A stretch of 64,000 bases of DNA from Ligustrum vulgare. Its lineage: Eukaryota; Streptophyta; Magnoliopsida; Lamiales; Oleaceae. Below the pieces are notes generated by a model that was not told the DNA's origin, made no database searches, and saw nothing but the letters and a program-made list of their open reading frames with translations. The translations under genes were made by a program, and so were the position numbers. Positions 16,283-45,448 of the stretch are shown here, piece after piece (the first letter of the stretch is position 1; the number at the start of each line of letters is the position of its first letter). The stretch spans positions 57,682,234 through 57,746,233 of the forward strand of contig OY743174.1 in assembly GCA_963555705.1 (NCBI GenBank), given 5' to 3'.

Positions 16283-18680
16283 TCCACAACCACCCCACCC
16301 CACCCCACCCCACCCCATAAAATAACTTTTTTTCTTATACTTTTCCACACTCACCCCCACCCCCCAACACCACCTTACCCACCCCACACAACACTCCTCC
16401 CCAACCCCACCCACCCACCCACGCACCCAACCACCACTCACTCACTCACCCACCAACCCCACCCCACCCCACCACACCACACCACAAGAATGATGTTACT
16501 TCCATTTTTTTCTCCCCCCACCCACCCACTAGTCCCATCCCATCACACCCACCCACCACTCCATCCCAACCCAATCCAACTCAACCCCGCACTCACCTCA
16601 CCCCACCCCATCAACCCACCCCACCTCAACTCAATAAATGAATTTTTTCCTTCTACTTTTTCACACTCACCCCGAACCCCGACACCAACTTATCCACCCC
16701 ACCCCATCGCACCCCTCCCCAACCCCACCCCACTCACCCCCACTTACAGACCACACCTCAAATCAATAAATGAATTTTTTCCTTCTACTTTTTCACCCCC
16801 ACCCCCACCCCCGACACCAACTTATCCACCCCACCCCACCCCACCTCACCCCTCCCCTCCCCAATCCCAACACAACCCACCCCACCCCCACTCACCCACC
16901 CACCCCTACCAAACCACACCACAAAAATAATTTTACTTCTATTTTTTTCTCATCTCAGACACCCACCCACCCACCCGTCCCATCCCACCCCACCCCACTG
17001 CTCCCCAAACCCAACCCACCCACCCCTAGTCCCACCCCACCCTATCCCACCCGCACCTCACTCAAAATGATTTTTTTCTACTACTTTTCCACAACTCGCC
17101 TAGACCCTACCATATCCTACCCCGCCACCTACCCCAACCCCACCCACCCCACCCAAAATTAATTTTTTTGCACTAATTTTCGACTCCCCCATCAGCCTTG
17201 CCCCAGACCCTACCCCAACCCACCTCACCAAAAATGATTTTTTTTTTTACTACTTTTCCACTCATCCACCAACCCCTCCCCTCCCCACCCCACCTCACCT
17301 TACCATACCCCGCAAAGTCACAATTGGTCACATTTCGGTCCCACCACCCTACCTACACACCCCACTTCAAAAATGATTTTTCGTCAATTTTTTCCCAAAT
17401 CACCCCACCCTACCCTATCCCGCAAAGTCACAGTTGGTCACACAAAATCACATTTCGATCCCCCGTCCCCTTACCCCACCCTACACACCCACCCCACTCA
17501 CCCAACCCTCAAAATGATTTTTCTTCTATTGTTTTCACTCCACCCACCCCGCCATTCCACCAACCCCACTCTATCTTACTCGTAAAGTCACAATTTGTAA
17601 CAAAATATCACAATTCTATCCCCCACCACCCTACCCTACTCTACCCTACCCTACCCCACTACCCAACCCCACCCCACCCAATAATGATTTTTCTTCTATT
17701 TTTCTCACCCTACCCTACCCGTAAAATCACAATTGGTCATACGAAATCACACCCCACCCTCACCCAATAATGATTTTTCTTCTATTTTCTCGCACCCCCA
17801 CCCCAACCACCCCTACCTGTCCCCCAACCCACCCACCCTATCCCGCGCAGTCACAATTGATTACACAAAGTCATATTTCGGTCACAATTACAAATTTAGT
17901 TACAAATTTTACCCAAGCCCACCCTCCATCCACAAGTCACAGTTAGTCACAAAAAGTCACAATTACAAATTTAGTCGCAAATTTCACGGTGCCCCCAATC
18001 CACCGTACCCACACTCGCCTTCACCCAACCCAAAAAGTCAAGATCATAAAAGTAATAATTCAGTCACAATTACAAATTTAATAGCAAATTCCCCACCCCA
18101 CCCAGCTAAGTCACAGTTGGTCACACGAAACCATAGTGTGGTGACAATTACAAATTTAGTTGCAAAATTAACCCCACCCGAAAGGTCACAGTTGGTCACA
18201 CAAAGTCACAGTTCGGTGGCACAAGGTCATAGTTCGGTGACACAAGGTCATAGTTCGGTAGCACGAGGTCACAGTTTAATCACATGAGGTCACAGTTAGA
18301 TTGCATAAAATCACAATTCTCGATCAAACAAAGTCACAGTTCGCTCACACAAGATCATAATTCGGTCACACGAGGTCACGATTTGGTCACATGAGGTCAT
18401 TGCCACCCCACCCCACTTTACCCCATCCCATCCCACCCGGTCTTACCCCACCCCCACAACCCCAAGATACCCACCACCTAACCAGAGTCACAATATGTCA
18501 CACAAAGTCACAATTCAATCACAATTATAAATCTAGTCGAAAAATTCACCCACCCCACCCCATCTCATCCCGAGTCATATTTGGTAACACAAAGTAACAA
18601 TCGGTCATAATTACAAATTTAGTCGCAACATTCACTCCACCCCATCCTCATTCCACCCACTTGCAAATTCGCAATTTTGA
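16283..18680 (+). repeat. C-rich, nearly G-free tract with (CCCAC/CCCCA)n
   Basis: For more than a kilobase the plus strand is mostly CCCAC/CCCCA units separated by AATGATTTTT[tct]TCTA-like spacers, with very few G bases. Long open frames here (such as 16490-16930 and 17198-17770) give only Pro/Thr/His/Ser-rich translations and are artefacts of composition. The complementary strand has many GGGG runs and could form G-quadruplexes. From about 17300 the spacers acquire GTCAC words. Confidence 0.9.
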
Positions 18681-23080: not shown

Positions 23081-24093
23081 GGGTAATTATATTAACACCA
23101 CAATTTAGTTACAAAGAATATCTTCAATATTTGTTTACTTTTATTCTTATGTCCTCAATTTTTCTTCATCGCATTATTATTCATAACATTCAATTAATTA
23201 ACATATTTTATTTCTATTCACAATTTCTATTCAAATATCCTTCTAATTTGCATTGAAAAGATTTGCAAATATTTTTTAAAACTTTTGTATTAATTATTTA
23301 TTTTGATTATTTAAAAGTATGAGAGATAAATAAGTATTTTTCGCCCTTTTAACAAATATTTTGGATGAAAATCGTCTCTAAAGATAAGATGTGAAAATTA
23401 ATAAAAAGTTGATAATAAAAAAATTATAAAATAAAACTTGGCTGGGTAAATTTAAGAGGGATCTTCATTAAAATTAAAATGTGGTGTAGTTAACAAAAGT
23501 GAATATTACAGGGAGGCCTACTTTTAAAGATCAAAATTCAAATATAAGACAAAACTCAAATAATTTCAATTTTCAGGTTGTATACAGAATTTTAAAAATT
23601 AATTAATAAATTAAAATAGCCTAAAATTAAATTAAATACCCAATCCCATACCAAACCCTAATTAATTTCTCACCACTACATCTCTCTCCCACTCTCACCA
23701 TTGTGGTTCAACAGAGGAACGACCACACCCAACACCACATCAGTCTCTCCCCCCACCACCGACGCCACACCTTCCTCTTCGCTGGAGTTGACCACTTCTC
23801 CGAATGCCGCCAGCAAACCGCTGCCGGTAGAGGCGATTTCAACATAAACATCGGCTCTATTACATCAGGGCAGTGGCGACGCCGTCGCTGCTTCGATCTC
23901 GCAGCGTGTCGTCGCCTGCTACTTCGATCTTGTAGGGCTTCGCCGCAAACTATCACTATTACCCCAAGGAAGTGGCGACGCCGCCTGCTGCTTCGATCTC
24001 ACAGGGTGTCGCCGCCTGTTGCTTCGATCTTGTAGGGCGTCTCCACATTGACCACTTCTCCGGCTAGAATATTTAAGGTTTCTGGAATATAAG

Positions 24094-25986
24094 TGTGACG
24101 ACCCGAATTCTCGACCATTCGAGTGCCACAAAAAGTGACTCATATCATATTATCGAGACTTAAATAGTAATGTAAAATTATTCAAAAGAATAATTAGAAT
24201 CCCATAATTTTATTTGTGAATAAAAATAGAACATAATTTTCTTACATAAAGTTCAACATAATTATCTCATCAATCTTAATCACTTTTGCCACTTCCATGT
24301 TGACCGCCTCGAACCTTCAATTATCTGAAAATGGTAAATATCGTGGAGTGAGATTTATAAAATCCCAGTAAGTATACCAAGCATAAATTTTCTTTTGAAT
24401 GCATATGGATCATTTTCATCATAACATAGGATAGGATTGAAATATTCATAAACATAGGGAGACACAAGAATTTTACCGAACTTAAATGGCAAGAATTCTT
24501 ATGTGTAGCGCTACTAAACTCCGGTCCCCTTAGCATAATCATAAACATATCATATGGAACCCATAACAATCTTGTGAGATTGATTTCATAGCAATGATCC
24601 AAACATTTTCATAAAAACATAAGATATACTTACTTGTCATAAAAACATACTTACTTTTCATAAAAACATAAGGTATACTTACTTGTCATAAAAACATACT
24701 TACTTTTCATAAAAACATAAGGTGTATTTACCTTTCATAAAAACATACTTACTTTTCATAAAAACATAAGATATACTTACTTGTCATAAAAACATACTTA
24801 TTTTTCATAAAAACATAAGGTGTATTTACCTTTCATAAAAACATACTTACTTTTCATAAAAACATAAGATATACTTACTTGTCATAAAAACATACTTACT
24901 TTTCATAAAAACATAAGGTGTATTTACCTTTCATAAAAACATACTTACTTTTCATAAAAACATAAGATATACTTACCTTTTAAAAGATTAAAATGAAGTG
25001 TAGTAGTAAATGGACCAAAACTTTCTTGACCACCTTGAATTTCTCTTACTTGTGGATTTTGTCAAGAGATTGGAAATAAGTGTATATGTGTAGAGTTGTG
25101 TGTAAAAGAGATGGGTTTAAATAGATGTATAAAGTTGGCATATTGTAAACATAATCATTCAATTCTATTAATTTTAACACATCATTTTCTTAAAGTAAAG
25201 CACCATTCATATACTTTTCCATATTTATACAAATAATATGCTCTTCATGATTATATATAATGGAGTATATAAATCATTCATATACTTTTCCATATTTATA
25301 CAAATATTATGCTCTTCATGATTACATATAATGGAGTCTTATCAATCATTCATATACTTTTCCATATTTATACAAATATTATGCTCTTCATGATTATATA
25401 TAATGGAGTATATAATTCATTCATATACTTTTCCATATTTATACAAATATTATGCTCTTCATGATTACATATAATGGAGTCTTATCAATCATTCATATAC
25501 TTTTCCATATTTATACAAATATTATGCTCTTCATGATTATATATAATGGAGTATATAATTCATTCATATACTTTTCCATATTTATACAAATATTATGCTC
25601 TTCATGATTACATATAATGGAATCTATCAACCATTTATATACTTTTCCATATTTATTAAATTAAGATTCTCATAATTATTATATATAATGGAACCTCTCA
25701 TGCTTGCATATATTTTCTTAATTTAAATAATAAAAGTAATTTTTGTACAAATAAATATTGGGATAACATTGAATTAAGTACTTAGACTTAATATACTTTA
25801 AATCAAGAGAATGGAGATATTTTTAGAAATTCGGAATTTAAATTAAAATCGAACGATCTCGATTATTTCTTGACTTGGCTATACGAATACGTCGTGGCGT
25901 TAACTTAATAAAAATGGGTGAAATAGTAGCGACACGATTTTCTATTAAAATAATTATTAATCGCGTAAAAATTCTTGGTCGCTACA
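24094..25986 (-). repeat. 3' LTR of the LOG-carrying element
   Basis: A 1893-bp LTR. It contains a tandem array of a 49-bp unit (CATAAAAACATA words, 24606-24980) and about seven copies of a 71-72-bp unit (CATTCATATACTTTTCCATA, 25204-25640). A short minus-strand open frame (24321-24602) recurs at the same place in the other LTR but is not a recognised gene. Confidence 0.93.
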
Positions 25987-26003
25987 AACTTACCCCCTTA
26001 AAA
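25987..26003 (-). promoter_or_regulatory. Polypurine tract of the LOG-carrying element
   Basis: The minus strand reads TTTTAAGGGGGTAAGTT directly against the 3' LTR start TGTAGCG. This is the plus-strand priming site and fixes the element's orientation. Confidence 0.7.
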
Positions 26004-26918
26004 TAATTTCGTCCTCGAAATTAATCTTACTTGATCTTATGATTTCTGAACACTTAATCAGAATCTCTTCTTCTTCTTCTTATGTAGCATCATCGCTACC
26101 ATATTTAACCCAACCATATTTAACCCACTGGACTTTGACTAAATGCATCAATTTGTTTTCTTAAGACATGGACTTTTCTATCAATAATAGACATATGTCT
26201 ACTCATAAATTCTTCTGAATCAAAATAAAAATTCCCAATCGTATGTGATATTTCATCATATCTTGTAGTATTCATGTAACTTGTCATTTATCATCGTATC
26301 ATGTGACCTCAAATATTCGTATTAATATCTCTAAAATTTCAATAAATCTTTACTAACATATCATACCATAATAATTTGTCATTTCTTCTTATCACCAAAT
26401 ATCCCAAAATAATTAAAACGATTACCTGAATATTCTCTATGTAATATACCCAAACATGTTATTCACATATCAACATAATCATCAGTTTATCTTTCCAATA
26501 TTTGTAACCCAAAATTTCTGCAAAATTCAATAAACAAATATCTCCCAAATAATTAAAATTCTTAACTCAAATATCATAACATTTCCCGTAAGGTATTCCT
26601 TTCACTTGCACAAACTTATTAATCCTGATTCAATACAGTCCTTATTTCACTTTCACGTATCCCCGTATTATTTCTATACCTTGATTATTATATCAAAATA
26701 TCAGTACCCAAAATCCAAGAAAATATTCCATATCTCAAATCCCGTCATCATCAAATCTTCCTTTTATCAAGAAAGTAAACGGCGTATAAACTCTTGTTCC
26801 CTCTTTTCCATTATTCTATTCCGCGCTTTCTTGCTGGAATCAATATCACGCGGATTCCCTCCGATCCTTAATGCTTTTAAATAGTTCATGCTGGGAAGAG
26901 GTTAGATCCATCAAAAAC

Positions 26919-27470
26919 ATGGATATCATTCTTACAAACATTCGCAAGTATTATTCCAGTCTTCCAATGAATGATCTGAGGAAAATTTATCGAATAAGAC
27001 TCGAAAGATTGAGGTTGCTGATGGCTCATGGTGTTTCAGAAGATGTTCGCTGGTTGATCGAAGCAAAGGTTCGACTATCTGGTGAATTACCTATGACATT
27101 TCCAAAGCACATGCCTGGTTTAGGCAAAAGCACCTTCGCAAAGAAACGAAGAGCAAAAAGGCTGAATGGTTGCTACAAATGTGCTCGTTGGAACTGTGAT
27201 ACTCGTTGCAAAACAGTAGGATATTCTTCTACTAATCGGGATGATAAAATCAAATTCATAAAGGGTGGACTGAGTAAGGAGTCTTTGGATGATATTCGAC
27301 TGACTCTTGAGACGCACCCAAGTGGTTATGTGCAACGTGAACTTCTCTCCTTATACGCTCAGTTTAACGAGGACAAAAATCGTTATAGTCTCCAAAATAT
27401 AATAGCAAAAGATCCTGTTTGCCAGTCTGTTTTACAAAATGAGGCTTCTGGCAGTTCAACAATGATATAA
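26919..27470 (+). CDS. Cys-rich basic protein resembling plant-virus nucleic-acid-binding proteins
   Basis: An intact 184-residue frame starts at ATG 26919 (context AACATGG). An in-frame ATG lies 16 codons upstream at 26871. The N-terminal half is helical and rich in Arg/Leu. At about residues 72-100 comes KSTFAKKRRAKRLNGC followed by a C-x2-C-x4-C-x3-C cluster. A basic KRRAK run directly before a small Cys cluster is the hallmark of the nucleic-acid-binding/silencing-suppressor proteins of carlaviruses and vitiviruses (Betaflexiviridae). The Cys spacing differs from the usual carlavirus form and the C-terminal 80 residues are unplaced. It lies antisense to the LTR element and 296 bp upstream of the LOG ORF on the same strand. 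It could be an endogenised viral gene or a host/element protein with convergent features. Expression is unknown. Confidence 0.45.
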   Translation: MDIILTNIRKYYSSLPMNDLRKIYRIRLERLRLLMAHGVSEDVRWLIEAKVRLSGELPMTFPKHMPGLGKSTFAKKRRAKRLNGCYKCARWNCDTRCKTVGYSSTNRDDKIKFIKGGLSKESLDDIRLTLETHPSGYVQRELLSLYAQFNEDKNRYSLQNIIAKDPVCQSVLQNEASGSSTMI

Positions 27471-27766
27471 GGTAAATCTCTTGATACACATTTAAAATAT
27501 TTTGTTGTTTTCTTTCACGCGTTTTGGAAATAAAATATATTTTCCTTTCTCGAGTTTTGATAAAGCTGGAAATAAATCACCGAAAGGTGATATCTTTGGT
27601 AAAACAGTCAAAAGTTGGCCGATTTTGACAAAAGTAAATCTTTACTTTTTCATAATCAATCAAAAACAGTAAATTTTTTCGGCTTTAAATAGCCAAACAT
27701 ATTTCATAGTTCAGGCATCCCAAAATCACATCTTCTTCGTAAGTTTTCTCTTCTATACTATCAAAG
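27471..27766 (+). promoter_or_regulatory. Spacer with TATA-like box upstream of the LOG ORF
   Basis: The 296-bp spacer between the two ORFs contains TTTAAATA at 27684-27691, about 80 bp before the LOG ATG. A CT-rich leader (TTCTTCGTAAGTTTTCTCTT) follows. This layout fits a plant promoter and 5' UTR, but no experiment supports it. Confidence 0.4.
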
Positions 27767-28420
27767 ATGGAAGCACCAAAACTTCGACAGATCAAAACTA
27801 TTTGTGTATTTTGTGGATCAAAAGTGGGGAAAGGCTTCAGTTATCTAGAAGCGGCCGTAGATCTTGGAAAGAAACTGGGGGAAAAAGGTATCACTCTTGT
27901 GTATGGGGGTGGTAGCAGTGGTCTAATGGGTTGTGTTTCCCAATCTGCTCTTGCAGAGAAATCAAAAGTAATCGGTGTCATACCTGTCCCTTTGGTAGAT
28001 GTTGCAGGAAAAACACGAGGGCATGAAGTTCAAACATTATCCATCCATGAACGCATAACTTGTATGCTATATGGTTCTGATGCCTTTATAGCCCTGCCCG
28101 GAGGTTTTGGTACCTTAGAAGAAATCTTTAACATTACCTCGTGGGCTCAACTAGATCTCCATACTAAGCCTATTGGGCTTCTGAATGTTAACAATTTCTT
28201 TGATGGCTTGTTAACCTTTCTTGATTATGCTGTGGAACAGGGATTCATCTCTCCATTTTCCAGAAGGCTCCTTATTTCTGCTCCTACTATTGATGAACTA
28301 CTGGATAAGCTGCAGTCATATATCTCAATACAAGATCCAGCAGGGGTTAAGATAGATTGGTCGCAAGGAAGGGGAATCAAGCGAAAATGGAGTCCGGTTA
28401 ATGTAAACTTAACTTTATGA
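27767..28420 (+). CDS. LOG-like: Cytokinin riboside 5'-monophosphate phosphoribohydrolase, LOG-like, intronless
   Basis: An intact 217-residue frame covers the whole LOG fold. It has ICVFCGS at 12-18, the nucleotide-binding GGGSSGLMG at 47-55, the conserved HER with Arg96, the signature PGGFGTLEE at 111-119 with catalytic Glu119, and SWAQL followed by KPIGLLNV. LOG enzymes release active free-base cytokinins from nucleoside monophosphates in the cytosol. Length matches plant LOGs (about 210-225). Plant LOG genes normally have several introns; this one has none, so it looks like a cDNA-derived capture. It lies antisense inside a young LTR element and retains every motif, which suggests recent acquisition or selection. 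The last 25 residues (DWSQGRGIKRKWSP onward) are basic and unlike the usual tail. Sequence identity to the donor gene cannot be measured here. Confidence 0.88.
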   Translation: MEAPKLRQIKTICVFCGSKVGKGFSYLEAAVDLGKKLGEKGITLVYGGGSSGLMGCVSQSALAEKSKVIGVIPVPLVDVAGKTRGHEVQTLSIHERITCMLYGSDAFIALPGGFGTLEEIFNITSWAQLDLHTKPIGLLNVNNFFDGLLTFLDYAVEQGFISPFSRRLLISAPTIDELLDKLQSYISIQDPAGVKIDWSQGRGIKRKWSPVNVNLTL

Positions 28421-28430
28421 ATCTTAGAAT

Positions 28431-28646
28431 AGGTGGGGGTAGAGTACGGAGTATTCTTACTCTCGAGACACCCCTCTAATTTCCTAGGATTTCCTTAATG
28501 TTTAAATCTTGTGTGTACCTCAAAGGTTCCAGGTGGTAGATTACGGAGTATTCTTACTCTCGAAACACACCTCTTTGAAGGTTTCTTTATTTCCTCAAAA
28601 GGTCAGAGGTGGTAGGATACGGCTACTCCGGAAACACATCTCTCAA
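28431..28646 (+). repeat. Three related hairpins downstream of the LOG ORF
   Basis: Three units lie at about 28431-28477, 28530-28574 and 28605-28643. Each reads AGGTGG..., then TACGGAGTATTCTTACTC in the first two (degenerate in the third), then a CACACCT-type end. The outer arms AGGTG/CACCT pair, and the inner arms GAGTA/TACTC close a TTCT loop. All follow the LOG stop codon by less than 230 bp on the same strand, as expected for a structured 3' UTR. Function unknown. Confidence 0.7.
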
Positions 28647-28779
28647 TTTGAGGAATTTCCCATGTTGCTTTCTTTTGATTTTGCGTGTTTCATGTATTTC
28701 TTTCCAATGTGACTCTTGTGTGTTCTCCTTACGAGAAAATAATAAATATCTCTGTTATCATCTACTAAATCTCGTTTGT

Positions 28780-30619
28780 GATGTAAATGAATTTGCATGT
28801 CTAACCTCAATTCTCTTAGTGATTGCATACCATACTATGCTCTTAATTCCAAACGATAAAATTCTAAGCAGAGTTTCCTTTGAAATTTGGACTTATTCAA
28901 ACCGTAAGCATACTTCATAACTCACAATAATAAATAATTCCACATTTGATCACAACGATCTAAAAATTGACCACAATTTCATCAAACTTCAATATCATAA
29001 AAAAATATTCCAGAAAATCAATTCATAATTCCTCAACATAGAAATTTCAAATCATAGTCGTCAATATCACAATATCACTTCCTTCAATACCTTAATTGGC
29101 TCAAAAGATTACTCATACTTATATTTATATGTCATAAATCATATTCCCAAAATTTAATCACAAGGCCAAAGTTCATAATAAATTTCTCTTCAATATAGAG
29201 GCATAATTCACTTACTCAACATAATATCCATTACTTAATTCCCAATAACCAAATCTTTAAATCTCTAACTTCATAATGCTTCTCATAAAAGTCTCATTAA
29301 AATCATATCACTTATAATCTTAACATCTCATAAAAATTCATAAAATTGGCTCGCTATTTCTCATTAAATCTAAATGATAGATAATCTGAACATATTTCTA
29401 ATCATTTCTGTTGACTTCTCATACTTAATGCCATGTCTAAAATCAATTATGCAAAGTCCATTTAAGGTTTATCATTTCTAAACTCGAGGACAACAATTAT
29501 TTTGAAAATCATTCTTAAGTCATATTATTCCCATTATGCTCAACACCCGTTCTCTTTCTTTCTTTTCTTTCTGAATTTTTTTTTTTTTTTTTTTTTTTTT
29601 TCAGAATTGAAACTTGAAGAGTGGTACCAATAATCATCCACAGTTTTTCCTTGCTTTTAAGCAAAGGTAGTGATAAAGGGATAAATTATTGAACCGAAAA
29701 TTGAAACTTGAAGAGGAAGTACTAATAACCATCCACAGTTTTTCCCTTGTTTTTACACAAAGGTAGTGATAAAGGGATAAATTATTGTACGAATTCATTA
29801 TCAATTTTTGTTTGTTTAATATATTATTCCATATATTTTGGGCAAAAGTTACAACCCAACTTAATTTCTAATTGAGTCAATCTTACTAAGCTTAATATGC
29901 ACCAAAATTCATATAAATATCCTCTCTGTCTCATGATTCTACATTGAAAAGAATAAAAAAATTGAGTCTTCTATCAATTTATATCATACTTGACATGTAT
30001 ATTATGTGTAACACATAAAGATTCATAACATATGAAGATTTCATACTTAACATGTCTTAATAAAATCGTAAATGACTTGCAAAGCATATAACATACCTGG
30101 TTCGAGGAGTCAATACGTGGAGAGTGACATAGTAGAGTGATGAGTTAAAATATTTCATATAATCTTATTTTCCTTTAATCAACAATAATTTAATGTGGTT
30201 GTATCCAAATCAACATTTTCTTGAATCATAATTCCTAATTAATCACAGTCTTCAAAACAAATCCAATATCGATATAGTAATTATCTCCCCATCAATAATT
30301 AATAACTTAACCCAAATAAAATTTATCGTCAAATCTTATTTTTCCTTTAGTCCCCGAACTTCTAGAAATTTATCAAAGACATCAATATAAACATCATATC
30401 ACTAACTAATTATATTCCATAAAATTTTCAGGACATTACAAACTCCCTTGCTTAAAATGAATTTTGTCCTTGAAATTCGCACATCAAATTTCATCATGCT
30501 TTTCAAAATCATAACCATACTTGACATGTGAAAATTCAACTTTTTTTTTTAATAATGAATAGTGATTTCGTTCACTGTTCATCATGAATAGCACGTCGTT
30601 TTACTGTTCACGTGAATAG

Positions 30620-30656
<37 letters not shown>

Positions 30657-30699
30657 AATAAAATTTCAAAAATCTACAGAATCGTTTTTAAAACTCTTT
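28780..30699. other. Non-coding interior of the LOG-carrying element
   Basis: AT-rich with no gag-pol frame on either strand. It includes poly-T runs (about 29578-29602 and 30622-30650). A tandem duplication of about 95 bp (29606-29690 and 29702-29787) shares ATTGAAACTTGAAGAG and GTAGTGATAAAGGGATAAAT. Near the primer site there are GAATAGTGA/TCACTATTC and CACGTG palindromes (30560-30625). Confidence 0.6.
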
Positions 30700-30711
30700 G
30701 CTCTGATACCA
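30700..30711 (-). promoter_or_regulatory. tRNA-iMet primer-binding site of the LOG-carrying element
   Basis: The minus strand reads TGGTATCAGAGC, complementary to the 3' end of initiator tRNA-Met. It lies two bases inside the 5' LTR end. Confidence 0.88.
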
Positions 30712-30713
30712 AC

Positions 30714-32606
30714 TGTGACGACCCGAATTCTCGACCATTCGAGTGCCACAAAAAGTGACTCATATCATATTATCGAGACTTAAATAGTAATGTAAAATTA
30801 TTCAAAAGAATAATTAGAATCCCATAATTTTATTTGTGAATAAAAATAGAACATAATTTTCTTACATAAAGTTCAACATAATTATCTCATCAATCTTAAC
30901 CACTTTTGCCACTTCCATGTTGACCGCCTCGAACCTTCAATTATCTGAAAATGGTAAATATCGTGGAGTGAGATTTATAAAATCCCAGTAAGTATACCAA
31001 GCATAAATTTTCTTTTGAATGCATATGGATCATTTTCATCATAACATAGGATAGGATTGAAATATTCATAAACATAGGGAGACACAAGAATTTTACCGAA
31101 CTTAAATGGCAAGAATTCTTATGTGTAGCGCTACTAAACTCCGGTCCCCTTAGCATAATCATAAACATATCATATGGAACCCATAACAATCTTGTGAGAT
31201 TGATTTCATAGCAATGATCCAAACATTTTCATAAAAACATAAGATATACTTACTTGTCATAAAAACATACTTACTTTTCATAAAAACATAAGGTATACTT
31301 ACTTGTCATAAAAACATACTTACTTTTCATAAAAACATAAGGTGTATTTACCTTTCATAAAAACATACTTACTTTTCATAAAAACATAAGATATACTTAC
31401 TTGTCATAAAAACATACTTATTTTTCATAAAAACATAAGGTGTATTTACCTTTCATAAAAACATACTTACTTTTCATAAAAACATAAGATATACTTACTT
31501 GTCATAAAAACATACTTACTTTTCATAAAAACATAAGGTGTATTTACCTTTCATAAAAACATACTTACTTTTCATAAAAACATAAGATATACTTACCTTT
31601 TAAAAGATTAAAATGAAGTGTAGTAGTAAATGGACCAAAACTTTCTTGACCACCTTGAATTTCTCTTACTTGTGGATTTTGTCAAGAGATTGGAAATAAG
31701 TGTATATGTGTAGAGTTGTGTGTAAAAGAGATGGGTTTAAATAGATGTATAAAGTTGGCATATTGTAAACATAATCATTCAATTCTATTAATTTTAACAC
31801 ATCATTTTCTTAAAGTAAAGCACCATTCATATACTTTTCCATATTTATACAAATAATATGCTCTTCATGATTATATATAATGGAGTATATAAATCATTCA
31901 TATACTTTTCCATATTTATACAAATATTATGCTCTTCATGATTACATATAATGGAGTCTTATCAATCATTCATATACTTTTCCATATTTATACAAATATT
32001 ATGCTCTTCATGATTATATATAATGGAGTATATAATTCATTCATATACTTTTCCATATTTATACAAATATTATGCTCTTCATGATTACATATAATGGAGT
32101 CTTATCAATCATTCATATACTTTTCCATATTTATACAAATATTATGCTCTTCATGATTATATATAATGGAGTATATAATTCATTCATATACTTTTCCATA
32201 TTTATACAAATATTATGCTCTTCATGATTACATATAATGGAATCTATCAACCATTTATATACTTTTCCATATTTATTAAATTAAGATTCTCATAATTATT
32301 ATATATAATGGAACCTCTCATGCTTGCATATATTTTCTTAATTTAAATAATAAAAGTAATTTTTGTACAAATAAATATTGGGATAACATTGAATTAAGTA
32401 CTTAGACTTAATATACTTTAAATCAAGAGAATGGAGATATTTTTAGAAATTCGGAATTTAAATTAAAATCGAACGATCTCGATTATTTCTTGACTTGGCT
32501 ATACGAATACGTCGTGGCGTTAACTTAATAAAAATGGGTGAAATAGTAGCGACACGATTTTCTATTAAAATAATTATTAATCGCGTAAAAATTCTTGGTC
32601 GCTACA
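30714..32606 (-). repeat. 5' LTR of the LOG-carrying element
   Basis: The same 1893-bp sequence as 24094-25986 at a constant offset of 6620. The only difference I found is C at 30900 against T at 24280. It contains the same 49-bp and 71-72-bp tandem arrays. Confidence 0.93.
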
Positions 32607-32611
32607 ATAAG

Positions 32612-39092: not shown

Positions 39093-41022
39093 TGTGACGA
39101 CCCGAATTTTCGACCATTCGAGTGCCACTAAAAGTGACTCATATCATATTATCGAGACTTAAATATTAATGTAAAATTATTCAAAAGAATAATTAGAATC
39201 TCATAATTTAATTTGTGAATAAAAATAGAACATAATTTTCTTACATAAAGTTCAACATAATTATCTCATCAATCTTAACCACTTTTGCCACTTCCATGTT
39301 GACCGCCTCGAATCTTCAATTATCTGAAAATGATAAATATCGTGGAGTGAGATTTATAAAATCCCAGTAAGTATACCAAGCATAATTTTCTTTTGAAAGC
39401 ATATGGATCATTTTCATCATAACATAGGATAGGATCGAAATCCTCATAAACATAGAGAGACACAAGAATTTTACCGAACTTAGATGACAAGAATTCTTAT
39501 GTGTAGCGCTACTAAACTCCGGTCCCCTTAGCATAATCATAAACATATCATATGGGACCAATAGCAATCTTGTGAGATTGATTTCATAGCAATGATCCAA
39601 ACATTTTCGTAAAAACATAAGGTATATCTAATTTTCATAAAAACATACTTACTTTTCTTAAAAATATAAGGTATTTTACTTTTCATAAAAACATACTTAC
39701 TTTTCTTAAAAACATAAGGTGTATTTACCTTTCATAAAAACATACTTACTTTTCATAAAAACATAAGGTAATACCTTTCATAAAAACATACTTACTTTTC
39801 ATAAAAACTTAAAGTATATTTACATTTCATAACAACATACTTAATTTTCATAAAAACATAAGATATACTTACCTTTTAAAAGATTAAAATGAAGTGTAGT
39901 AGTAAATGGACCAAAACTTTCTTGACCACCTTGAATTTCTCTTACTTGTGGATTTTGTCAAGAGGTTGGAAATAAGTGTATATGTGTAGAGTTGTGTGTA
40001 AAAGAGATGAGTTTAAATAGATGTATAAAGTTGGCATATTGTAAACATAATCATTCAATTCTATTAATTTTAACACATCATTTTCTTAAAGTAAAGCACC
40101 ATTCATATACTTTTCCATATTTATACAAATAATATGCTCTTCATGATTATATATAATGGAGTCTATCAATCATTCATATACTTTTCCATATTTATACAAT
40201 TATTATGCTCTTCATGATTATATATAATGGAGTATATAAATCATTCATATACTTTTCCATATTTATACAAATATTATGCTCTTCATGATTACATATAATG
40301 GAGTCTTATCAATCATTCATATACTTTTCCATATTTATACAAATATTATGCTCTTCATGATTATATATAATGGAGTATATAATTCATTCATATACTTTTC
40401 CATATTTATACAAATATTATGCTCTTCATGATTACATATAATGGAGTCTATCAACCATTCATATACTTTTCCATATTTATACAATTATTATGCTCTTCAT
40501 GTTTATATATAATGGAGTATATAATTCATTCATATACTTTTCCATATTTATACAATTATTATGCTCTTCATGTTTATATATAATGGAGTATATAATTCAT
40601 TCATATACTTTTCCATATTTATACAAATATTATGCTCTTCATGATTACATATAATGGAGTCTATCAACCATTCATATACTTTTCCATATTTATTAAATTA
40701 AGATTCTCATAATTATTATATATAATGGAACCTCTCATGCTTGCATATATTTTCTTAATTTCAATAATAAAAATAATTTTTGTATAAATAAATATTGGGA
40801 TAACATTGAATTAAGTACTTGGACTTAATATACTTTAAATCAAGAGAATGGAGATATTTTTAGAAATTCGGAATTTAATTTAAAATCGAACGATCTCGAT
40901 TATTTCTTGACTTGGCTATACGAATACGTCACGGCGTTACTTAATAAAAATGGGTGAAATAGTAGCGACACGATTTTCTATTAAAATAATTATTAATCGC
41001 GTAAAAATTCTTGGTCGCTACA
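39093..41022 (-). mobile_element. Solo LTR, relative of the LOG-carrying element's LTR
   Basis: A 1930-bp sequence homologous to the 1893-bp LTRs at 24094 and 30714, with the same termini, is flanked by the perfect 5-bp repeat TAATG (39088-39092, 41023-41027). It lies inside the 5' LTR of the inner copia. It has extra copies of the 71-72-bp tandem unit and many substitutions, so it is an older insertion that lost its interior by LTR recombination. Confidence 0.93.
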
Positions 41023-41573
41023 TAATGCAAGTAATGAATCAATGAAATCATTCAATAAAAATCTTGTTATGGTATCAGAGCCTCCATCTAAGAGGACTCC
41101 CTGTGACATTTAAAGCTCAATTCGCAGTTTCGAGACTCACCTTGGCGGACTACATCTTTGTGGTAGTCGTCGATTTTGATTGAGGTCTATCTGTGTAGGC
41201 GATTCCAGCTTTTGTGTCGCCGATTGCAGTCGATGTTTCGCTGATTTCAGAATTTTAATTGTTGAAATTTTCTACTGTGGTGATTCTTCTTCGTTGTGGT
41301 GCTTCCTTCTTCGCGTGGGCTCAGCCGGACATCTTGAAAGTCCCGAGAAATTGGAAGATTCAAATCAGGTGCTTCGTTATTCTTTAGATTCAGTTGTTTC
41401 TTTATTTCTTTGTGTGGCTGTGGCTAAAGGATTGGGAGATATAGACGTGTTGTTGTAGTAAATTTGGTTCTGGGCCTCTAGCTTTATATTGGGCTATCAA
41501 TAATTTTCTTTGGGCTACCATATTATATTTAATCTTTTTTTGGTTGCTTTATTGCAATTATTGTTTAAAAGTC

Positions 41574-44500
41574 ATGTCTGTTGAAACATTTTGTGTTTAT
41601 TGCAATTATTGTTTAAAAGTCATGTCTGTTGAAACATTTTGTGTTAAGTTTACGGGAAAGAATTATTCAATATGGGAATTCCAGTTTAAGATGTTTTTAA
41701 AGGGAAAAGAGCTTTGGGGTCATATTGATGGGTCGTCTACGGTGCCTGAAGATGCTAAGGATCTCAACGCATGGGAAACAAAGGATGCCCGTATTATTTC
41801 TTGGATTCTGGGATCTATGGAAGCACACATGGTTAATAATCTGCGTTCTTTCACTATTGCGAAAGAAATGTGGGAGTACTTGAAGCGTATTTATTATCAA
41901 GACAATAATGCTCGGAGATTTCAGTTGGAGTTAGAAATTGCTAATTACACTCAAGGTAATCTTACCATTGAGCAGTATTATTCTGGCTTTCTGAACTTGT
42001 GGAGCGGGTACTTAGGGATAATTCATGCTAAGGTCCCTGCGACGGCATTATTAGCATTACTAGAAGTTCAAGAAGTTAGTCAGCGGGATCAATTTCTTAT
42101 GAAATTACGACCTGAATTTGAAGTTGCTCGGGCAGGCCTATTGAATCGCAATCCAGTTCCTTCTCTGGATATATGTTTGGGTGAACTTTTGTGTGAAGAA
42201 CAACTATTGGTTACTCAGGCTACCATGGGAGGCAATATGTCCTCATCTAATGTAATGACTGTTGCATATACTGCCCAAGGACGAGGGAAGAGTAAACTCC
42301 AGTGCTTCTGCTGCAAAGGATATGGTCATATTGCTCGTCATTGCCCTCAAAAGGTCTGCACTTACTGTAAGCAATCGGGACATATCATCAAGGAGTGTCC
42401 CACACGACCTCAAAATCGTAAAGCTCAGGGTCCTACTCCCGCAAGTTCACAAGTTAGCACCAATCAACCAAATCTTACCCCAGAAATGGTTCAGCAAATG
42501 ATTATTTCCGCCTTTTCTACATTGGGTCTACAAGGTAAGGGTGAATCTATTTCTTCTCCCTGGCTTGTTGATTCAGGGGCATCGAATCACATGACAGGTA
42601 GTTCTGACTCTTTGCAAAACATCCGTAGCTATAATGGCACACAACATATTCAGATTGCTAATGGTAGTACCCTTCCAATTACTGCTGTGGGTGATATTGG
42701 GTCTTCATTTCAGAACGTTTTTATATCTCCAGGCTTATCTCCAAACTTGATTTCAGTTGGTCAATTAGTTGATAATAACGGTGATGTGTGTTTCTCTCGT
42801 GATGGTTGTCTTGTGCAGGATCAGGGGTCGGGGAAGGTGATCGCGAAGGGGCCTAAAGTCGGAAGATTATTTCCATTGCAATTTACTTTTCCTACTGCTT
42901 TATCTTTAGCTTGTTTTAGTGTTGGACTTAAACATGAGACTTGGCATAAAAGATTAGGGCATCCAAATATTTTAATTTTATCTCATTTGTTGAAATGTGG
43001 TTTATTGGGTAATAAAGAACAGTCTCAATTATCAAATCTGTCTTTTGATTGTGCTACTTGTAAACTTGGGAAAAGCAAGACTCTTCCATTTCCCTCTTAT
43101 GGCAGTCGTGCTGATAAATGCTTTCAGATCATCCATAGTGATGTTTGGGGCGTGGCACCCGTCACTTCTCATGCTCGTTATAAGTATTTTATAACATTTA
43201 TTGACGATTTCAGTCGTTATACTTGGATATATTTTCTTCGCTCTAAAAGTGAGGTTAGCACCACCCTTAAGACTTTTGTAGCCTATATTGAGACACAATT
43301 CTCTTCCAGTATTCAGATTTTAAGGTCTGACAATGGCGGGGAATATATGTCTCGTGACTGTCAAACCTTTTTGCAACAGAAGGGCATTCTCTCACAACGA
43401 TCTTGTCCATACACTCCTCAGCAGAATGGAGTAGCCGAAAAAAAGAATCGCCACTTGTTAGACTTTGTGTGAGTTTTGCTCTTGGAATCTTCAGTTCCAC
43501 CTAGATTTTGGGTTGAAGCTCTCTCTACAGCTGTATACCTAATTAATCGACTTCCTGTTCAGCATTTGGAATTGTCCCCCCTCATTTCCGCTTGTACCGT
43601 ATACATCCTGGATATGCCATTTTGTATACTTTTGGATGTGTTTGCTTTGTTCATTTGCCTTCTCATGAACGTCACAAGCTTTCTGCTCAATCCGCACGGT
43701 GTGCTTTCATGGGTTATAGTATTCCTTAAAAGGGTTTTATTTGTTATGATGGTGTTGCAAATCGCTTTCGTATATCTAGGAATGTGGTTTTCTTTGAGAA
43801 TCAGTATTATTTCCAGCAACATGTTGTAACCCCTTCTGATTTGGCTCCACTCATTAACTTTGAGGATGAGGATGATTCTCGATCTATTGAACGTTTTAAA
43901 CCAGGTGTGGTATATCAACGACGAAGGCCTCCAACTCCACCACCCCTTCCCGACCCTGATCCCGTTCCTGGCTCTACTGATCTTAGGCGATCCACTCGCG
44001 TTACTCGTCCTCCCAATTGGTATGGATTCTCTACAACTTTATCTCATATCACAGTTCCTACTTCTTATTCTCAGGCAGTTACCTAACCATGTTGGGATAA
44101 AGCTATGCAAGAGGAAATTCAAGCCCTACAAGAAAATCACACATGGGATATTGTTTCTTGCTCTCCTGTTGCCAAAATGACAACGGTCCGAATTGTTCTT
44201 GCTATAGCTGCCTCCAAGGGATGGTCTTTGCGGCAGATGGATGTCAAAAATGCTTTCTTACATGGTGACCTTAAGGAAGAAATTTATATGACGCCTCCCC
44301 CGGGCCTCTTTTCTTTGCCATCCTCTAATGTGTGTAAACTAAAGCGTTCGCTTTATGGATTGAAACAAGCTCCTAGTGCTTGGTTTGACAAGTTTCGCTC
44401 CACTCTTTTGGGGTTCTAATTCACACAGAGTCAATATGATTCGTCTCTCTTTATCTCTAACACCAAGGATGGTACTGTACTTCTTCTGGTCTATGTGGAT

Positions 44501-45448
44501 GATATTGTTATTACCGGGACTAACTCTGAATTGATATCTCAACTTCAAAATCAACTGAAGGAATCCTTTAATATGAAGGATTTGGGTCCCTTACAGTACT
44601 TCTTAGGTCTAGAAGTGCTTTCAAGTCCAGTCGGAACTTACCTACATCAGCATAAGTATATGGAGGAGTTGATTAATTTAGCAGGACTTCAGGATGGTCG
44701 CTCGGTTGATACCCCCATGGAGGTGAATGTGAAGTATCGTAAGGAGGAGGGTGATCTTCTTCCTGATCCCTCTCTATACCGCCAATTAGTGGGTAGTCTA
44801 AACTATCTCACTATTACACGGCCCGATATTTCTTTTTCCGTACAACAAGTTTGTCAGTTTATGCATGCTCCACGACATCTTCATTTGGCCGCAGTTCAAC
44901 GCATTATTCGATACTTGTTAGGTACACCTGATAGGGGATTTTTCTTTCCTGCCAAATCTTGGCTTCAGTTGGTAGGTTATAGTGATGCGGATTGGGCCGG
45001 ATGTACTGATACTCGTCGGTCAATTACAGGTTGGTGTATGTTTCTTGGGAGTGCGTTAATTTCTTGGCGAAGTAAGAAGCAGGACCGCGTCTCTAAATCT
45101 TCCACTGAATCTGAGTATCGAGCTATGTCTTCAGCCTGTTCTGAGATTGTTTGGCTTCGAGGTCTTCTAGCGGAGCTTGGTTTTCCTCAGTATGAGCCTA
45201 CTCCACTTCATGCCGACAACACTAGTGCCATTCAAATTGCTGCTAATCCTGTGTTTCATGAGCGCACTAAGCACATTGAAGTCGATTGTCACTCTATTCG
45301 TGAGGCTTATGATGGTCGCATTATAACTCTTCCTCATATCACTACTAATGTCCAGACCGCTGATGTGTTTACCAAGGCAATGACTCGACAAATGCATCAG
45401 TTTCTTGTTAGCAAATTGATGCTTCTTGATCACCCAGCATCAATTTGA
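41574..45448 (+). pseudogene. gag-pol: Copia gag-pol of the inner element, broken
   Basis: From ATG 41574 a long frame encodes gag, two CCHC knuckles (CFCCKGYGHIARHC and CTYCKQSGHIIKEC), protease (WLVDSGASNHMT), integrase (HKRLGHPN, IIHSDVWG, FIDDFSRYTW, RSDNGGEY, TPQQNGVAE) up to a stop near 43471. Integrase C-terminal pieces follow in shifted frames (43476-44086). RT resumes at 44105 but lacks about 40 residues between SPVA and KMTTVR. It has [11 protein letters not shown] and YGLKQAP, a stop at 44417, then YVDDIVITG and RNase H (SDADWAG, ADNTSAI) to 45448. An in-frame 48-bp tandem duplication repeats the first 16 codons (41574 and 41622). Non-autonomous now. Confidence 0.92.

What the first reader, a model, noticed from the sequence alone, without database searches (positions are those of the whole stretch)
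24094..32606. A very young LTR retrotransposon carries an intact cytokinin-activating LOG gene and a virus-like ORF instead of gag-pol
Seen: near-identical 1893-bp LTRs, ATAAG target duplication, PBS and PPT fixing minus orientation, no gag-pol. Two intact plus-strand ORFs are present: a 217-aa LOG with PGGFGTLEE and Arg96, and a 184-aa protein with KKRRAKRL next to a Cys cluster. Established: LOG enzymes make free-base cytokinin, and plant LOG genes have introns. Inferred: the element captured a spliced LOG cDNA, possibly with viral sequence, and spread it recently. A mobile cytokinin-activating gene, antisense to its carrier, could be a selfish or host-co-opted trait.
Basis: partly seen in the sequence, partly recalled or inferred. 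Interest (0 to 1): 0.92.

Follow-up and report, generated by a model that had tools for sequence, protein, structure and literature searches.

The report
Retrotransposon carrying virus-like and hormone-enzyme genes
A recently inserted retrotransposon without copying genes of its own carries, on its reverse strand, two intact genes, one related to nucleic-acid-binding proteins of plant viruses and one to a plant hormone enzyme with an altered substrate pocket, and this conserved pair likely helps such elements to spread, possibly by blunting host silencing.

Summary
Window 24094-32606 is a young non-autonomous LTR retrotransposon in minus orientation: 1893-bp LTRs with one mismatch, TSD ATAAG, no gag-pol domain found. 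Two intact ORFs lie antisense inside it. The interpretation changes. ORF 1 belongs to the carlavirus nucleic-acid-binding protein family (Pfam Viral_NABP, 1.2e-7). ORF 2 is a LOG, but not a recent host capture: it sits in a clade of 116 sequences (support 0.957) apart from 95 canonical plant LOGs. The two are a couple: 20 of 20 cassettes fetched around LOG hits in this genome have NABP next door, and at least 150 copies encode an identical NABP. A ~2.1-kb module (both genes, conserved TATA-like boxes, 3' repeats) lies antisense in two different LTR backbones here. dN/dS between module types is 0.06-0.10 (LOG) and 0.16-0.20 (NABP). 'Cytokinin-activating' is doubtful: catalytic Arg/Glu are kept in 106 of 115 relatives, but two prenyl-pocket residues in only 5 and 4 of 115; 92 of 120 relatives end in an EAR-type LxLxL tail (canonical 0 of 120; the window protein lacks a strict one). 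LOG domains in LTR elements are in print; the viral partner, the tail and the backbone exchange I did not find.

The parts
24089..24093 (.). target-site duplication ATAAG, left
24094..25986 (-). LTR (3' LTR in the element's own orientation), 1893 bp
25987..26003 (-). purine tract next to the LTR (PPT), AAGGGGGTAAG on the minus strand
   Evidence: sequence
26600..28688 (+). module shared with the B-type element (79% over 2133 columns); nothing else of the element matched B1 at E 1e-3
26876..26884 (+). TATA-like TTTAAATAG 35 bp upstream of the NABP ATG, identical in B1 and B2
26919..27470 (+). NABP-like ORF, 183 aa: basic KKRRAKRL then C-x2-C-x4-C-x3-C
   Evidence: Pfam Viral_NABP 1.2e-7, Carla_C4 7.7e-5; alignment A1
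27684..27692 (+). TATA-like TTTAAATAG upstream of LOG, identical in B1 and B2
27767..28420 (+). LOG-type ORF, 217 aa, no intron: PGGFGTLEE, Arg96, Glu119 kept; Ile97 and Asn122 at pocket positions; tail KRKWSPVNVNLTL
28435..28644 (+). three related repeats downstream of LOG (28435-28477, 28532-28574, 28605-28644), highly conserved between A and B types
30700..30711 (-). primer-binding site TGGTATCAGAGC
30714..32606 (-). LTR (5' LTR in the element's own orientation), 1893 bp
32607..32611 (.). target-site duplication ATAAG, right
39093..41022 (-). another LTR of the same family (pieces 92-96% identical), probably solo: no second such LTR or interior match beside it in the window

Best explanation
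The element is a non-autonomous LTR retrotransposon that carries, antisense to itself, a two-gene module (a carlavirus-type nucleic-acid-binding protein and a divergent LOG protein) whose dN/dS between module types is 0.06-0.20 and which likely acts as an accessory-gene pair helping the element against host silencing. How it would work: the backbone has LTRs, PBS and PPT but no gag-pol found, so it is inferred to be copied in trans by other elements. Each gene is predicted to be transcribed from its own TATA box (boxes conserved; transcription untested). NABP, with a basic motif followed by four cysteines as in viral cysteine-rich proteins, would bind nucleic acid and blunt RNA silencing (inferred from the viral family). 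The LOG relative keeps fold and catalytic pair but has an altered substrate pocket and, in most relatives, a basic plus LxLxL tail; it would act in the nucleus on another nucleotide and/or bind TOPLESS-type corepressors (inferred; no strict LxLxL in this plant's copies seen). The module occurs in two different LTR backbones of this genome, so it has likely moved between them and behaves as a unit of its own.
For: Viral_NABP/Carla_C4 above curated cut-offs; 20 of the top 25 viral structure matches are small flexivirus proteins, 18 labelled nucleic-acid/RNA-binding or silencing suppressor, though none reaches E 0.001. [quoted passage not shown] NABP beside LOG in 20 of 20 cassettes fetched from a LOG-only search; three fused gene models in Orobanche. 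dN/dS 0.162-0.203 (13 NABP pairs) and 0.057-0.104 (17 LOG pairs) against B type. Conserved TATA-like boxes and 3' repeats. Module in a second LTR backbone. NABP in sense behind integrase in another plant. Tail 92 of 120 against 0 of 120; pocket and catalytic counts. At least 150 identical NABP ORFs.
Against: No transcript or protein data. In the 20 copies fetched by NABP, 6 have a premature stop or indel in LOG; in the 20 fetched by LOG, 4 have a broken NABP. Fetched copies come from best-scoring, mostly open hits, so constraint is somewhat overstated; within A type dN/dS is uneven on few changes (NABP 0.19, 0.51, undefined; LOG 0.78, 0.12, 0.32). The window LOG ends VNVNLTL, and the 20 B and A tails seen also lack strict LxLxL. 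The NABP model is weak (pLDDT 62.4). The cysteine spacing differs from the C-x2-C-x9-C-x4-C given for potato virus H. Selection might act in autonomous donors only. L025 shows NABP without LOG within the 1 kb held downstream.
Confidence: 0.5

Rival explanations
1. Passenger: the module is useful only in autonomous gag-pol elements (the kind glimpsed in L025); non-autonomous elements have taken it up and copy it as ballast, and the low dN/dS reflects selection in the donors.
For: NABP lies in sense behind integrase in L025. LOG singletons in A copies look neutral: 20 of 26 are non-synonymous or stops. 10 listed NABP hits in this genome are nearer to L025 (70-73%), 4 of them with a stop.
Against: Both non-autonomous types carry intact pairs in large number; of 7 shared LOG variants inside A the three at frequency 8 or more are all synonymous (few sites); promoter-like and 3' parts are kept with the genes.
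Confidence: 0.27
2. Selfish hormone gene: the LOG is an ordinary cytokinin-activating enzyme by which the element drives division of the cells in which it copies itself.
For: LOG fold (Foldseek best 2a33, TM 0.77/0.96); catalytic Arg and Glu both kept in 106 of 115; LOG has the lower dN/dS of the two genes.
Against: Lys100 kept in 5 and Glu125 in 4 of 115, against 95 of 95 each in canonical LOGs (roles from PMC4979012 passages, where the prenyl site is itself inferred by superposition and one mycobacterial LOG also differs there). The gained tail is not explained.
Confidence: 0.13
3. Recent capture of a host LOG mRNA by this element.
For: The ORF has no intron.
Against: Separate clade from 95 canonical LOGs of many plants; the same pair lies in a second LTR backbone with dS 0.38-0.77 from the window.
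Confidence: 0.03
4. A fragment of an unknown plant RNA virus with NABP and LOG near its 3' end was integrated and then amplified.
For: NABP is the 3'-proximal gene of carlaviruses (PMC3689765 passages); repeats follow LOG.
Against: No NABP relative confirmed in the viral contig collection by sequence or alignment; LOG-type hits there are only 24-41% identical; TATA-like boxes before each gene; named relatives in the two lists are plants.
Confidence: 0.07

Closest known systems
LTR elements with a LOG/YgdH domain in Citrus sinensis, C. clementina and Populus trichocarpa (PMC9289625, section 12 read; it cites Steinbauerova et al. 2011, not held; that they were called Athila-like with similarity to LOGL4 is recalled)
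   Same: LOG domain inside plant LTR elements
   Different: There found in consensuses chosen by reverse transcriptase; no NABP partner, tail or pocket change mentioned in what I read; here no gag-pol and antisense genes
Antisense additional ORFs (aORF-3R) of Grande, RIRE2, Retand, PvRetro13 (PMC7264820 and PMC11963269, passages)
   Same: Conserved ORFs antisense to the element; own promoter shown for Grande gene23 according to PMC7264820
   Different: Those are between pol and 3' LTR of Gypsy elements, mostly TRP28 or no known domain and of unknown origin; here two ORFs with recognisable viral and LOG kinship
Carlavirus cysteine-rich / nucleic-acid-binding proteins (PMC3689765, passages)
   Same: Pfam family, basic motif followed by a cysteine cluster
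   Different: Different cysteine spacing, longer protein, in plant transposons, paired with LOG
AlkB-carrying Ty3/gypsy elements of Phalaenopsis (PMC9289625, abstract and section 12)
   Same: LTR element with an added enzyme proposed to act against host surveillance
   Different: One gene in a 25-kb gag-pol element of one orchid genus
EAR-motif repressors such as SUPERMAN (PMC6479872, passages)
   Same: LxLxL at the C-terminus of most relatives
   Different: On a LOG enzyme, not a transcription factor; degenerate in the window protein

Membership tests
Non-autonomous LTR retrotransposon | paired LTRs, TSD, PBS, PPT | tested here: met
   for other copies
Non-autonomous LTR retrotransposon | no gag-pol | tested here: met
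   no Pfam domain in six translations
Athila-type Ty3/gypsy element | Ty3/gypsy pol domains in the element | tested here: not met
   in L025 RNase H and integrase are present, but the Athila label for L025 is recalled, not tested
LOG phosphoribohydrolase | LOG fold and PGGxGTxxE with catalytic Arg and Glu | tested here: met
LOG phosphoribohydrolase | prenyl-pocket Lys and Glu of cytokinin-making LOGs | tested here: not met
   Ile97 and Asn122 in the window; 5 and 4 of 115 relatives keep them
LOG phosphoribohydrolase | release of free-base cytokinin | not testable with these tools
   needs enzyme assay
Carlavirus-type NABP/CRP | Pfam profile above cut-off | tested here: met
   Viral_NABP 32.4 bits (cut-off 23), Carla_C4 23 (20.9)
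Carlavirus-type NABP/CRP | basic motif followed by zinc-finger-like cysteines | tested here: met
   KKRRAKRL, then C86 C89 C94 C98, each at 90% or more in 34 sequences; spacing differs from potato virus H
Carlavirus-type NABP/CRP | 3'-proximal gene of an RNA virus genome | tested here: not met
   lies in plant LTR elements
Carlavirus-type NABP/CRP | nucleic-acid binding or silencing suppression | not testable with these tools
   needs bench assay
EAR-motif (LxLxL) protein | LxLxL motif | tested here: inconclusive
   92 of 120 relatives have it in the last residues, 0 of 120 canonical LOGs; window protein ends VNVNLTL and does not

The most novel reading that the evidence does not exclude
A virus-descended silencing suppressor and a neofunctionalised, nucleus-directed, corepressor-binding LOG form a two-gene anti-host module that hops between unrelated retrotransposon families across flowering plants and turns elements without copying genes into some of the most numerous in a genome.
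Probability: 0.33. Interest if true: 0.93.

Novelty: new variant of a known kind. Interest (0 to 1): 0.82.

Why it matters
Antisense additional ORFs of plant LTR elements are described as being of unknown origin and function (PMC7264820, passages). Here both genes have recognisable kin, conserved promoter-like and 3' parts, low dN/dS and very many copies, so the question of what such accessory genes do becomes directly testable: does the NABP suppress silencing of transposon RNA, and what does a LOG without the usual cytokinin pocket but (in most relatives) with a repressor-type tail do? It would also be a case of one functional module exchanged between different LTR backbones, and of a viral gene family kept under constraint inside transposons.

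Tried and rejected
Recent host-LOG capture: disfavoured by the tree. Assembly chimera: excluded by many copies. Virus in IMG/VR: no NABP relative confirmed; window LOG alone found none; the LOG alignment found 24 distant hits, 24-41% identical, not studied further. Rfam: no match at E 0.1. Folding of the 3' repeats: z -0.96 to -1.50 for single repeats, +0.86 for a longer piece; no claim of structure. Solved structures for NABP: best E 0.26, no relative. Pairing NABP and LOG of unnamed contigs by equal contig length is an inference (8723, 4511, 1524, 1558 bp); equal lengths 905, 873, 1018 (both ORFs cannot fit) and 1006 (different sources) were dropped by me. Distances over 9 pairs (4 of them these, 3 Orobanche fusions, window, one B copy) correlate, Mantel r 0.70, p 0.0002; with one Orobanche only, 7 pairs, r 0.52, exact p 0.033. 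The within-family contrast rests on 7 shared variants. The autonomous partner and the surroundings of the 70-73% NABP group stayed unseen.

Selections and rows dropped: the tree used 115 of 120 transposon-type LOGs plus the window and 95 of 120 canonical ones (length limits); residue counts used those 115 and 95. Copies fetched: 20 of the 40 listed and 20 of the 150 listed, picked by me for spread; 2 of 17 B copies with flanks. In one search four of 20 copies (L034, L045, L051, L052) did not show both LTR ends and were left out of the age range. NABP dN/dS used 16 of 20 cassettes, the 4 broken ones left out. TSDs of the B copies were not determined.
Full report
WHAT IS THERE. The element at 24094-32606 has two 1893-bp LTRs with one mismatch, an ATAAG duplication and, in minus orientation, a PBS and a purine tract. 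Six translations of its 4.7-kb interior, three minus frames of all of it and three plus frames of the part after LOG, hold no Pfam domain. Two ORFs stand on the plus strand, antisense to the element: 26919-27470 and 27767-28420. Another LTR of the family, probably solo, is at 39093-41022.

COPY NUMBER AND AGE. A DNA search with the NABP region gave 532 first-look candidates; 40 were scored, all about 100% identical. A protein search gave 8802 candidates; 150 were scored and all 150 are 100% identical over 184 residues without a stop. These are the best hits, so their identity is ascertained, but 150 (the window included) is a floor for the number of identical ORFs. I fetched 20 of the 40. Both LTR ends were found in 16; LTR-LTR divergence is 0-0.59%; 14 of 16 have identical TSDs, L035 differs at one base, and L043 does not match and has a further NABP copy beginning within the same 10 kb. 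With the NABP fixed by ascertainment, nucleotide diversity in 21 copies (window included) is 0.0087 in the spacer, 0.0073 in LOG, 0.0137 upstream and 0.013-0.048 downstream. In 6 of the 20, LOG has a premature stop or an indel.

THE FIRST GENE. It matches Pfam Viral_NABP (1.2e-7, 32.4 bits, cut-off 23) and Carla_C4 (7.7e-5). The protein search returned 439 relatives at E 0.1, the best 120 listed; those with an organism name are plants (Orobanche, Populus, Xanthoceras, Acer). Its four cysteines and parts of the basic stretch are invariant or conserved at 90% or more in 34 sequences. The AlphaFold model is weak (mean pLDDT 62.4). In the viral structure library no hit reaches E 0.001 (best 0.044), yet 20 of the top 25 rows are small flexivirus proteins, 18 labelled nucleic-acid/RNA-binding or silencing suppressor (that all 20 viruses are flexiviruses is partly recalled). 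[quoted passage not shown]

THE SECOND GENE. It is a LOG by profile, sequence and fold. Of 7230 relatives the best 120 were listed, 48-63% identical to the window except P0001 (93%); named ones are plants. In a tree 115 of these plus the window form one clade (support 0.957) apart from 95 canonical plant LOGs (support 0.692) and Arabidopsis LOG8, with a bacterial outgroup. The canonical list is 74-98% identical to Arabidopsis LOG3. Catalytic Arg and Glu are both kept in 106 of 115; Lys100 in 5 and Glu125 in 4, against 95 of 95 each in canonical LOGs (residue roles from PMC4979012, passages; the mapping of C. glutamicum numbers onto the window is mine, by the shared motifs). LxLxL stands in the last residues of 92 of 120, a basic cluster in the last 25 of 105 of 120; for canonical LOGs 0 and 1 of 120. 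LxLxL is an EAR repression motif (PMC6479872, passages). The window protein has the basic KRK but ends VNVNLTL, and the tails of the 20 cassettes seen likewise lack a strict motif. In the AlphaFold model residues 201-217 are below pLDDT 50.

THE PAIR. A search of this genome with a LOG of another source (P0021) gave 8983 candidates, 150 scored, all open. In 20 of 20 cassettes fetched from that list NABP lies just upstream on the same strand: 3 resemble the window (A), 17 are a second type (B). LOG is full length in 20 of 20 (they were chosen by LOG), NABP in 16 of 20. In Orobanche three gene models fuse NABP with a LOG piece (P0139, P0140, P0142).

TWO BACKBONES. Two B copies with flanks show a different element: LTRs of about 215 and 235 bp at 99.1 and 99.6% identity, 6.3 and 6.0 kb in all, no ORF of gag-pol size, the module again antisense by PPT and PBS side. 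The PBS side (TTATCAGCACGATGCTCTAACCAAC) resembles half-tRNA primer sites of copia-type elements, a label I recall and did not test. Outside window 26600-28688 the window element matches B1 nowhere at E 1e-3. Within the module the TATA-like boxes, stretches of the LOG leader and the third 3' repeat are almost identical, while synonymous divergence is 0.38-0.77.

SELECTION. Window against B: NABP dN/dS 0.162-0.203 in 13 pairs, LOG 0.057-0.104 in 17 pairs. The three comparisons inside A rest on few changes (NABP 0.19, 0.51, undefined; LOG 0.78, 0.12, 0.32). NABP of the window against L025 gives 0.22 (NG86) or 0.35 (LWL85). Inside A, 20 of 26 LOG singletons are non-synonymous or stops, as expected of copies decaying after insertion; of 7 shared variants 4 are synonymous, including all three at frequency 8 or more. 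The hits were chosen among open, well-scoring ones, so the constraint is an upper estimate.

ANOTHER CONTEXT. L025, a 3.3-kb contig filed under a bacterial MAG but looking like plant DNA, has part of RNase H, the zinc-binding and core integrase domains, then NABP on the same strand, 62-65% identical to the window. So NABP also occurs as a sense gene behind pol of a Ty3/gypsy element. LOG was not found in the remaining 1 kb of that contig.

LITERATURE. LOG/YgdH domains in LTR elements of Citrus and Populus are in print (PMC9289625, section 12 read). I found no paper on an NABP partner in plant transposons, on the tail or on the exchange of backbones in the searches; the library lacks most subscription journals, and Steinbauerova et al. 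2011 was not held.

VERDICT. The reading shifts from a recently captured cytokinin gene to an older, mobile, constrained two-gene module of viral-type and LOG kinship. Its anti-silencing and nuclear roles are inferred.

Noticed in passing
window 28435-28644; L025:1676-1712: Three related repeats follow LOG; the third is almost identical between A and B types although synonymous sites have diverged. A similar stretch lies upstream of NABP in L025. Function unexplained.
   Followed up: partly
window 39093-41022: Probably a solo LTR of the same family, 92-96% identical in pieces.
   Followed up: partly
G000, for example C22:1306460-1326777 and C23:10311325-10338627: NABP copies at regular ~6.6-6.7-kb spacing on one strand, as if elements stood head to tail in arrays.
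   Followed up: no
L025 (DAIEQH010000041.1): A contig filed under a Candidatus Nomurabacteria MAG carries plant-type Ty3/gypsy pol and NABP, so probably plant contamination of a bacterial genome record.
   Followed up: partly
window 41445-45448: Copia-like gag-pol fragments in long open frames (by eye; no profile run).
   Followed up: no
window 16283-18287: Overlapping plus-strand open frames of low complexity, rich in Pro, His, Thr and Ser.
   Followed up: no
Reevesia pubescens rows: Dozens of proteins of the transposon-type LOG clade are listed as predicted proteins of Reevesia pubescens, so LOG gene counts in such genomes may be inflated by transposons.
   Followed up: no
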